Assembly: GCF_018066915.1 (NCBI RefSeq)
Contig: NZ_JAGPVV010000019.1
Location: forward strand, 1 to 34,307
Length of the DNA stretch: 34,307 bases
Reading direction: 5' to 3'
DNA from: Roseovarius sp.
Lineage (GTDB): Bacteria; Pseudomonadota; Alphaproteobacteria; Rhodobacterales; Rhodobacteraceae
Of this stretch, positions 21,672-26,238 are shown piece by piece. The translations under genes were made by a program, and so were the position numbers. The stretch's first letter is position 1. Each line of letters begins with the position of its first letter. The notes below the pieces were generated by a model. The model saw nothing but the letters and a program-made list of their open reading frames with translations, had not been told where the DNA came from and searched no databases.

Positions 21672-22016
21672 ATGTTGAAACATCGCGGATTTCCCGGTCG
21701 TTTGCCGGGCACGGATTTCCAATTCACCATCAGACGCGCGAATCCCAAGGGGGCCACCCCTCTGATTGCGCGCGAGCGGTACCGAGACCGCAAGGCCGCC
21801 GACAAACGCGCGGACGCCGCCTTTGTGCGTGCGATATGGGAGTGTTTTGGCGAAGAGCCGTTCGAGCGTGGCAATCTCGATGCCGGGCGGTTGAGCTGGC
21901 TTTTGGGCCGCGAGGTCAAGCCGGTTGATGACCCCTTTGACTCCACAAGTTACGAGGCGCTGCTGGTTCTGGATCTCGCGCTCGCGCGCGAGTCATTTCC
22001 CGAGGTGTTCGTGTGA
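21672..22016 (+). CDS. Hypothetical protein
   Basis: 114-aa ORF MLKHRGFPGRLPGTDFQFTIRRANPKGATPLIARERYRDRKAADKRADAAFVRAIWE... Confidence 0.6.
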   Translation: MLKHRGFPGRLPGTDFQFTIRRANPKGATPLIARERYRDRKAADKRADAAFVRAIWECFGEEPFERGNLDAGRLSWLLGREVKPVDDPFDSTSYEALLVLDLALARESFPEVFV

Positions 22017-22819: not shown

Positions 22820-24819
22820 ATGTTCAAGAAAATACTGATTGCCAACCGGGGCGAAATCGCCTGTCGCGTGATCAAGACCGCGCGCAAGATGGGGATTGCG
22901 ACGGTGGCGATCTATTCCGATGCGGATCGCAACGCGCTGCATGTGCGCATGGCCGACGAGGCTGTTCACATCGGACCGGCACCCGCCTCTGAGAGCTATA
23001 TCGTGATCGACAAGGTGATGGCCGCCATCAAGGCCACGGGGGCCGAGGCGGTGCATCCCGGATATGGCTTTCTGTCCGAGAACCCCAAATTCGCGCAGGC
23101 GCTCGAGGCGGCGGGTGTGGCCTTTGTCGGGCCGCCGGTGCGGGCCATTGAGGCAATGGGCGACAAGATTACCAGCAAGAAGATCGCGCAGGAGGCCGGC
23201 GTCAGCACCGTGCCCGGCTACATGGGCCTGATCGCCGATGCCGAAGAGGCGGTGACGATCTCGAACCAGATCGGCTATCCGGTGATGATCAAGGCCTCTG
23301 CCGGGGGCGGCGGCAAGGGGATGCGTATCGCCTGGAATGACGAAGAGGCGCGTGAGGGATTTCAATCCTCCAAGAACGAGGCCGCGTCGAGTTTCGGGGA
23401 TGACCGCATCTTTATCGAGAAATTCGTCACCCAACCGCGCCATATCGAGATTCAGGTGCTCTGCGATACCCACGGTAACGGCATCTATCTGGGCGAGCGG
23501 GAATGCAGCATTCAGCGCCGGAACCAAAAGGTCATCGAAGAGGCGCCGAGCCCGTTTCTGGATGAGGCCACGCGCAAGGCGATGGGCGAGCAGGCCGTGG
23601 CGCTGGCGCAGGCGGTGGGCTATGCCAGTGCGGGCACCGTGGAATTCATCGTCGATGGCAAAAAGAATTTCTATTTCCTCGAGATGAACACGCGCCTTCA
23701 GGTGGAGCATCCGGTGACGGAATTGATCACCGGCGTTGATCTGGTCGAGCAGATGATCCGGGTGGCCAATGGTGAGGCGCTCAGCCTCACGCAGGCCGAT
23801 GTAAAGCTCAAGGGTTGGGCGATGGAGAGCCGCCTTTATGCCGAAGACCCCTATCGCGGGTTCCTGCCGTCGATCGGCCGTCTGAGCCGCTATCGTCCGC
23901 CCGAGGAATTGGCCATCGAGGGGCCGTGGTGCGCAATGACACCGGCGTCTTTGAAGGCGGCGAGATCAGCATGTATTATGACCCGATGATCGCCAAGCTC
24001 TGCACCTGGGGCCATACCCGCGCCGAGGCGATCGAGGGCATGCGGGTGGCACTCGACAGCTTTGAGGTTGAGGGGATCGGGCATAACCTGCCGTTCCTCA
24101 GTGCCGTGATGGATCATCCGCGCTTTGTCAGCGGCAATATCACCACGGCCTTTATCGCCGAGGAATATCCCGAAGGCTTCACTGGCGTCACGCTGCCGGA
24201 AGAGGCGTTGCGCGCGATTGCGGCAAGTACGGCGGCGATGCACCGTGTCGCCGAAATCCGGCGCACGCGGGTGTCGGGGCGGATGGACAATCACGAGCGG
24301 CATGTGGGCGAGGATTGGGTCGTGAACCTGCAAGGCCACAGCTATGCCGTGGTGGTGGCGGCGGATCGCGGGGGGGCGACCGTGCGGTTCGACGACGGCG
24401 ACACCCTGCGCGTCACAAGCGACTGGACACCGGGCGATCAACTGGCGCGGCTCGATGTGGATGGCCGGGCGCTGGTGCTCAAGGTCGGCAAGATCAGCGG
24501 CGGGTTCCGCATCCGCACACGCGGCGCCGATCTCAAGGTGCATGTGCGCACGCCCCGTCAGGCGGAATTGGCGGCGTTAATGCCCGAGAAACTGCCGCCT
24601 GATACATCAAAGCTGCTGCTCTGCCCGATGCCGGGGTTGATCGTGAAGGTCAATGTCGCGCCGGGCGACGAGGTGCAGGAGGGGCAGGCACTCTGCACGG
24701 TGGAGGCGATGAAGATGGAAAACATCCTGCGGGCCGAACGCAAGGGCGTGGTGGCAAAGGTCAACGCCGGACCGGGCGACAGTCTGGCGGTGGACGATGT
24801 GATCATGGAGTTCGAGTGA
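22820..24819 (+). pseudogene. pccA: Propionyl-CoA carboxylase alpha subunit, interrupted by an apparent 1-nt deletion
   Basis: Biotin carboxylase part 22820-~23921 in frame 1; continues from ~23922 in the ORF 23815-24819 frame through [27 protein letters not shown]... to BCCP motif EAMKMEN; total 2000 nt = 3n+2. Could be a sequencing error rather than a true pseudogene. Confidence 0.85.
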
Positions 24820-24823
24820 GCGG

Positions 24824-25723
24824 ATGATACCTGATTATCAATCCTTGATGAAGCCGGTGCTTGAGTTGGCGGCGTCCGGAGAGATGAAAATCTCGGACGC
24901 GGTCACTCAATTGGAGCGAGCATTCCGTCTCACTGAGGATGAGAGATCAGAGTTGTTGCCAAGCGGTAAGCAGACGAAGTTTGCCAACCGAGTACATTGG
25001 GCACGCAGTTATCTAAAGCAAGCTGGTCTTCTTCGAAATACGCGACGTGGACATTTCGAGATTACTGAAGAAGGACGCCGAGTACTGAACGCGAAGCCCG
25101 AGCGGATCGATGCAAAGTTTCTCTCGCGTTACGATGCATTCTTGGAGTTTAAGGCGCGATCAGGCTCTACAGGTGATGAACCACTAGAAATAGTGCCTTC
25201 AAGTGCGACAACACCGGACGAAGCGATGCGCGTGTCTTATGAGCAAATCGCAAATGCGTTGGCGGCGGATATCCTGTCGCGCCTGCGCGAGGCAGAACCC
25301 GCATTCTTCGAGGGGGTGATTGTCGATCTGCTCTTGAAAATGGGCTATGGCTACGGAACGGCAGCGGGTAACGTGCTCGGCCAATCTGGTGATGATGGGG
25401 TGGATGGAGTGATCAACCTCGATCCCTTGGGCGTTGATCAGGTCTATGTGCAAGCCAAGCGCTATCAGGCTGGGAGTCCTATCGGATCAGCGGCGATCCG
25501 GGATTTTTACGGGGCGCTGGGCCTGAAGGACGTAACTAAGGGTATATTCGTCACTACCTCGTCTTTCAGTCCGAATGCCCGAGCGACAGCGGAGAAGTTA
25601 GGCGCGCGGATCGTGCTCATTGATGGGCCTCAACTTGCGCGCTTGATGGTGGCACATGAAGTCGGTTGTCGTGTGACAGAGATCTTCAAAGTTTCAGTGG
25701 TCGAGGAGAGCTATTTCGAATGA
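24824..25723 (+). CDS. mrr: Mrr-type restriction endonuclease (type IV-like)
   Basis: Mrr N-terminal winged-helix-like region, then FFEGVIVDLLLKMGYGYG...GQSGDDGVDGVINLDPLGVDQVYVQAKRY (PD-(D/E)xK with QxK); IFVTTSSFSPNARATAEKLGARIVLIDGPQLARLM. Confidence 0.92.
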   Translation: MIPDYQSLMKPVLELAASGEMKISDAVTQLERAFRLTEDERSELLPSGKQTKFANRVHWARSYLKQAGLLRNTRRGHFEITEEGRRVLNAKPERIDAKFLSRYDAFLEFKARSGSTGDEPLEIVPSSATTPDEAMRVSYEQIANALAADILSRLREAEPAFFEGVIVDLLLKMGYGYGTAAGNVLGQSGDDGVDGVINLDPLGVDQVYVQAKRYQAGSPIGSAAIRDFYGALGLKDVTKGIFVTTSSFSPNARATAEKLGARIVLIDGPQLARLMVAHEVGCRVTEIFKVSVVEESYFE

Positions 25724-26238
25724 GCCACTTTGGCCCTCATGCGCGCGCGTGCGGACTGTTCCTCGCGGTGATCGCTTTTGTGTCCGCCTGCGCGCGCGAT
25801 GCCGAGGCGGAGCAGCGGGGACGGTTGGGGGCGTGGTTTGCGCTAGGGGAAACGGTGGTCTTTACCGCGACGATGCACTGTGCCGTGGGCCTTTACCGGG
25901 TGGCGGATGGGCGGATCAAGGCGGCGATGCCCCTGGTCGGATCACCGCCCGAAATGGTGCGGGTGCTGGCCGCACGGGGGCTTGCCGCCTTGGTCACGCC
26001 GGGACTGGCACCTGATGCCGCGATGGTGGCCATGGCCAATCTCGACCGTCCCACCGGCATGGCCATGCGCCGCGCAGGGCTAGAGGCGCGCGCCTGCATG
26101 GAGGCCACAAGCGAGAGCGCGTTTCATCATCTGTTGGGGCAATCTGGTGCGGTTCTGGCCTGGGAGGCAGAGACAGGCGCGCTCATGCTGATGGACCCCG
26201 GAGCCGGGCTCTTGATCGTGGCGATGGGGGCCGGGTGA
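25720..26238 (+). CDS. Hypothetical exported/lipoprotein-like protein
   Basis: MSHFGPHARACGLFLAVIAFVSACARDAEAEQ (signal/lipobox-like VSAC); ATGA overlap with mrr stop. Confidence 0.7.
   Translation: MSHFGPHARACGLFLAVIAFVSACARDAEAEQRGRLGAWFALGETVVFTATMHCAVGLYRVADGRIKAAMPLVGSPPEMVRVLAARGLAALVTPGLAPDAAMVAMANLDRPTGMAMRRAGLEARACMEATSESAFHHLLGQSGAVLAWEAETGALMLMDPGAGLLIVAMGAG

What the first reader, a model, noticed from the sequence alone, without database searches (positions are those of the whole stretch)
24824..25723. Mrr-type restriction gene inserted flush into the propionyl-CoA carboxylase operon
The mrr ORF starts 5 bp after the pccA stop and its stop overlaps the next ORF start (ATGA at 25720-25723), so it is collinear and probably cotranscribed with pccA. 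Composition differs: hand counts of two 60-base lines in its 5' half (24901, 25021) give about 50-52% GC, against about 67% for a pccA line (24661). That suggests horizontal acquisition without disturbing operon structure. Expression of a modified-DNA restriction enzyme might follow the propionate/acetate-responsive promoter, or the gene may be a recent cargo. No mobility gene is visible beside it.
Basis: partly seen in the sequence, partly recalled or inferred. Interest (0 to 1): 0.62.

Follow-up and report, generated by a model that had tools for sequence, protein, structure and literature searches.

The report
Old Mrr restriction gene behind pccA
An ordinary gene for an enzyme that cuts modified foreign DNA sits without a gap inside a propionate-use operon; it is not a recent arrival but an old, patchily kept resident at exactly this spot in several related marine bacteria.

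Summary
The gene is real: 24824-25723 encodes a complete Mrr-type (Type IV) nuclease, 4 bp behind the pccA stop, its stop overlapping the next start (ATGA). GC is 53% and GC3 55.5%, against 74 +/- 3% GC3 for 24 other window ORFs (z = -6.3). The same gene sits directly behind pccA in at least 11 other genomes (Roseovarius-like, Sulfitobacter, Rhodovulum, Chachezhania, others); these 12 copies form one clade (100/97) apart from unlinked Mrr copies, even those of the same genus. Synonymous sites are at or near saturation between all copies and non-synonymous change is low, so the gene is old and under purifying selection. It is also patchy: 5 of 77 readable same-genus junctions have it, the five nearest genomes lack it, and empty sites differ by exactly the ORF. 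Mrr and pccA+mcm trees reject each other, so a single origin was followed by many losses and probably some movement into the same site. A junction behind pccB also carries extra sequence in about 8 of 38 genomes, so this is no special hotspot. Best reading: a normal Mrr restriction enzyme in the propionyl-CoA operon. New member of a known kind.

The parts
24824..25723 (+). mrr: Mrr-type (Type IV) restriction endonuclease, 299 aa; Mrr_N winged-helix domain residues 5-89, Mrr_cat nuclease domain residues 154-275; catalytic-motif residues D194 and Q210-x-K212 (E. coli Mrr D203, Q219-x-K221)
24817..24826 (+). left junction: pccA stop TGA, 4-bp spacer GCGG, mrr ATG; in empty relatives the next gene's start sits at the same offset (TGA + 4 bp + ATG)
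25720..25723 (+). right junction: ATGA overlap of mrr stop and the start of the downstream ORF; homology with empty-site relatives resumes at this ATGA
22820..24819 (+). pccA (propionyl-CoA carboxylase alpha, biotin carboxylase/BT/biotinyl domains), host gene upstream; split by a one-base deletion at about 23919/23920 (N part 22820-23989, C part in another frame to 24819)
25720..26238 (+). downstream small-protein ORF (no Pfam match; probable lipoprotein, inferred from the start of the sequence) that directly follows pccA in empty-site relatives

Best explanation
This is an intact, stand-alone Mrr-type (Type IV, modification-dependent) restriction endonuclease gene in the pccA-mcm operon. Shown: it lies exactly between the pccA stop and the start of the usual next gene, so both neighbours keep their reading frames and stop/start spacing. 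Inferred: it is transcribed and translated as part of the propionyl-CoA operon; the N-terminal winged-helix domain binds foreign DNA carrying modified bases, and the C-terminal PD-(D/E)xK domain cuts it. A DNA methyltransferase that looks like CcrM (GANTC) is encoded in the same genome, so Mrr must tolerate the host's own mark (inferred; Zymomonas has both genes, PMC8432527). History: the pccA-mrr link arose once, and the gene has stayed under purifying selection in a minority of lineages of several genera. It has been lost often, by deletion flush to the ORF, and has probably also moved between lineages into the same site by recombination in the conserved flanks. Gene transfer agents, for which this genome carries a marker gene, are a plausible but untested vehicle.
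For: Domains over the whole length; 32% identity over the full length to E. coli K-12 Mrr, E = 2e-42, with the D203 and Q219-x-K221 positions conserved; the predicted fold (pLDDT 84) matches the nuclease domains of MspJI and AspBHI. Same site in Roseovarius-like genomes (L031, L032, L033, L034, L044), Sulfitobacter (L035, L037, L038), L036, Rhodovulum kholense (L039) and Chachezhania (L040). These 12 form one clade, 100/97, in 100% of bootstrap trees, excluding same-genus unlinked copies L007, L008, L013. Synonymous differences at or near saturation (pS 0.67-0.91) with dN 0.10-0.17 among the six closest copies. Empty site differs by exactly the ORF; pccA 3' end of carriers is closest to non-carriers in most cases. 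Carriers scattered: 10 changes on the pccA tree, 7 on the mcm tree; loss alone would need 28 and 14 losses in these samples. AU test: Mrr data reject the pccA+mcm tree (p = 4e-6) and the reverse (p = 3e-8). GTA marker PF13547 present, E = 5e-151; N6 methyltransferase with CcrM-like sequence.
Against: No expression or activity data. The pccA+mcm tree of the 12 carriers has several weak branches, and comparing two best trees overstates conflict. No donor-like flank was found beside mrr in the window, which speaks for ancestral presence plus loss and against recent transfer by recombination, so the balance of loss and transfer is unsettled. Mrr homology alone does not fix modification dependence (LlaGI has Mrr-like motifs but does not target methylated DNA, PMC3874153).
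Confidence: 0.8

Rival explanations
1. Recent horizontal cargo: the low-GC mrr arrived lately in this lineage from an unrelated donor and happened to land flush behind pccA.
For: GC3 z = -6.3; the five nearest genomes (pccA 95-97% identical in amino acids) lack it.
Against: Nearest Mrr copies are the pccA-linked ones of other species, at the same junction, as one clade; synonymous sites are at or near saturation; low GC3 (43-70%) is shared by nearly all linked copies, the Rhodovulum copy being the exception at 83%. A single late insertion would not match the site used in other genera.
Confidence: 0.08
2. Purely vertical inheritance from an ancestor of these genera, with loss in nearly all descendants.
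For: One clade of linked copies; flanks of carriers are mostly host-like; Mrr groups largely follow genera (Sulfitobacter together, Rhodovulum with Chachezhania).
Against: Only 5 of 77 readable same-genus junctions carry it, and among 397 family genomes, nearly all one per genus, only two others besides the window's own were seen with linked copies, so very many losses are needed (14-28 in the small samples); tree conflict; L033 of another genus falls inside the Roseovarius-like Mrr clade.
Confidence: 0.2
3. The junction behind pccA is a special landing site where genes, defence genes among them, are swapped in and out base-precisely without a mobile element.
For: 12 of 77 readable same-genus junctions hold an extra stretch here: 5 mrr and 7 others, including a 260-aa membrane protein, 120-130-aa membrane proteins and an ImpB/MucB-family polymerase; none of 65 have one between the next two genes.
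Against: The control junction behind pccB in the same operon has inserts of about 350-1350 bp in about 8 of 38 genomes, so the rate here is not unusual; the zero-insert interval is a convergent one and a poor control; the other inserts are not recognisable defence genes.
Confidence: 0.1

Closest known systems
E. coli K-12 Mrr (EcoKMrr, b4351), Type IV methyl-directed restriction enzyme
   Same: 32% identity over the full length, same Mrr_N + Mrr_cat layout, catalytic-motif residues conserved, same C-terminal YFE
   Different: E. coli mrr lies beside hsdRMS and mcrBC in a restriction cluster; here it lies in a propionyl-CoA carboxylase operon
MspJI/AspBHI family modification-dependent endonucleases
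   Same: fold of the nuclease domain
   Different: they carry an SRA-like DNA-reading domain (PMC3874153, for MspJI); this protein has Mrr_N instead
Zymomonas mobilis Mrr (ZMO0028)
   Same: an alphaproteobacterial Mrr in a host that also has CcrM (PMC8432527)
   Different: not compared by sequence here; genome setting not compared

Membership tests
Mrr-type Type IV restriction endonuclease | N-terminal Mrr_N domain and C-terminal Mrr_cat domain over the full length | tested here: met
   Pfam Mrr_N 3.8e-31 (profile 1-86 of 87) and Mrr_cat 3.1e-32 (1-115 of 115); PADLOC mREase_IV 8.1e-74
Mrr-type Type IV restriction endonuclease | intact PD-(D/E)xK-type motif (D ... Q-x-K) | tested here: met
   D194 and Q210-A-K212 invariant in 18 homologues and matching E. 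coli D203, Q219-A-K221
Mrr-type Type IV restriction endonuclease | PD-(D/E)xK nuclease fold | tested here: met
   AlphaFold model pLDDT 84; Foldseek matches to MspJI 3.1e-5 and AspBHI 6.9e-5, prob 1.00, part of the protein only (TM 0.33-0.36 by query length)
Mrr-type Type IV restriction endonuclease | stands alone, without a cognate methyltransferase or ATPase subunit beside it | tested here: met
   adjacent genes are pccA and a small protein ORF with no Pfam match
Mrr-type Type IV restriction endonuclease | cuts DNA only when it carries modified bases | not testable with these tools
   needs a biochemical or transformation assay
Recently acquired genomic-island cargo | recent arrival: near-identical copies elsewhere, mobility genes or repeats beside it | tested here: not met
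   best relatives are 79-85% identical and synonymously at or near saturation; empty site differs by the ORF alone

The most novel reading that the evidence does not exclude
Coupling a modification-dependent nuclease to the propionyl-CoA operon is kept by selection: expression follows propionate/odd-chain carbon use, so restriction is tuned to the growth state, and the pccA-mrr pair is maintained and re-acquired as a unit across genera.
Probability: 0.12. Interest if true: 0.55.

Novelty: new member of a known kind. Interest (0 to 1): 0.3.

Why it matters
It is a clear example of why low GC does not mean recent transfer: the gene has a strong compositional signature yet is old, selected and fixed in place. 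It also shows a defence gene gained and lost flush within a metabolic operon, without a visible mobile element or scar, which makes the question of whether restriction is tied to carbon metabolism testable in cultured carriers (Sulfitobacter delicatus, Rhodovulum kholense, Chachezhania sediminis).

Tried and rejected
Recent cargo: rejected by the linked clade and near-saturated synonymous sites. Hotspot behind pccA: weakened by the control junction behind pccB. Transfer with donor flanks: sliding identity and nearest-neighbour tests of pccA found none in the window. Integration through the shared TTCGA(A/G)TGA at the ends of pccA and mrr: set aside, since the YFE/FFE ending is common in Mrr, including E. 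coli and some unlinked copies. Sequence search of solved structures: no hit. No paper on Mrr next to propionyl-CoA carboxylase was found.

Full report
What is there. The ORF 24824-25723 is a complete 299-aa Mrr protein with near full-profile Mrr_N and Mrr_cat matches and the PADLOC Type IV model. It aligns over its whole length with E. coli K-12 Mrr at 32% identity (E 2e-42), and the acidic and Q-x-K residues of the nuclease motif are conserved. An AlphaFold model (pLDDT 84) matches the nuclease domains of MspJI and AspBHI; many RNA polymerase RPB5-type chains also match, with similar scores. The gene starts 4 bp behind the pccA stop and its stop overlaps the next start as ATGA.

Composition. 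The inference drawn from it is not. Nearly all pccA-linked copies have low GC3 (43-70%; Rhodovulum 83%), and many unlinked Mrr genes are also poorer in GC than their surroundings.

Comparative anatomy. The same gene lies directly behind pccA in Roseovarius-like genomes, three Sulfitobacter, Rhodovulum kholense, Chachezhania sediminis and others. All 12 linked copies are one clade at 100/97 support, while Mrr genes elsewhere in same-genus genomes (L007, L008, L013) fall outside. The five nearest genomes lack the gene. Their empty site reads pccA stop, 4 bp, ATG of the next gene; in carriers of the window's group mrr starts at that same offset (5 bp spacer in L032) and the mrr stop reads ATGA, at which the next gene can start. 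One of the five, G035, has an unrelated 260-aa membrane protein gene in the slot instead.

History. Synonymous sites are at or near saturation between all linked pairs (pS 0.67-0.91) with dN 0.10-0.17 among the six closest copies: old and under purifying selection. Carriers are scattered on the pccA tree (10 changes for 11 carriers, like shuffled labels) and less so on the mcm tree (7 changes). Strict single gain plus loss needs 28 and 14 losses in these samples (midpoint root). The Mrr and pccA+mcm trees reject each other, though the latter has weak nodes. The pccA 3' end of the window is closest to empty relatives, which favours old presence with loss in the sisters over a recent recombinational gain. 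I read this as one origin of the link, many losses and some movement into the same site. Gene transfer agents are conserved in Rhodobacterales (PMC9836097) and a GTA marker is present in this genome; that they moved this gene is inference.

Is the site special? In 77 readable same-genus junctions, 5 hold mrr and 7 other inserts; contents include small membrane proteins, a large membrane protein and an ImpB/MucB-family polymerase ('membrane' is read from the sequence). A control junction behind pccB has inserts in about 8 of 38 genomes. The region is simply fluid.

How it works. Inferred: an ordinary modification-dependent nuclease translated from the propionyl-CoA operon message. The genome has a CcrM-like methyltransferase (named from its sequence, not by a model) and a C5 methyltransferase, and no HsdM match, so Mrr has to spare the host's own marks; in Zymomonas Mrr and CcrM coexist (PMC8432527). 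E. coli Mrr responds to methyladenine and methylcytosine (PMC3874153). Neither activity nor cotranscription was tested here.

Caveats. The window is a contig of a 363-contig assembly; pccA carries a one-base deletion in a G run that may be an assembly error. Species placement rests on best matches to Roseovarius-named records.

Noticed in passing
window 23915-23925: One-base deletion in a run of G splits pccA into two frames; relatives have the base. Assembly error or real frameshift cannot be told without reads.
   Followed up: partly
L153 (G035), L178, L194, L039: A 220-270-aa protein family with no Pfam match (two members scanned) sits flush behind pccA, or behind mrr in Rhodovulum, in several Rhodobacterales.
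   Followed up: partly
L148 (G045): An ImpB/MucB-family (Y-family) polymerase gene in the slot behind pccA.
   Followed up: partly
window 21672-22016: Short ORF without a Pfam match is 69-95% conserved across the genus between DUF6497 and pccA: a conserved gene of unknown function.
   Followed up: partly
L210, L224, L228, L231, L234, L236, L237, L239: Inserts of about 350-1350 bp behind pccB in same-genus genomes; contents not examined.
   Followed up: no
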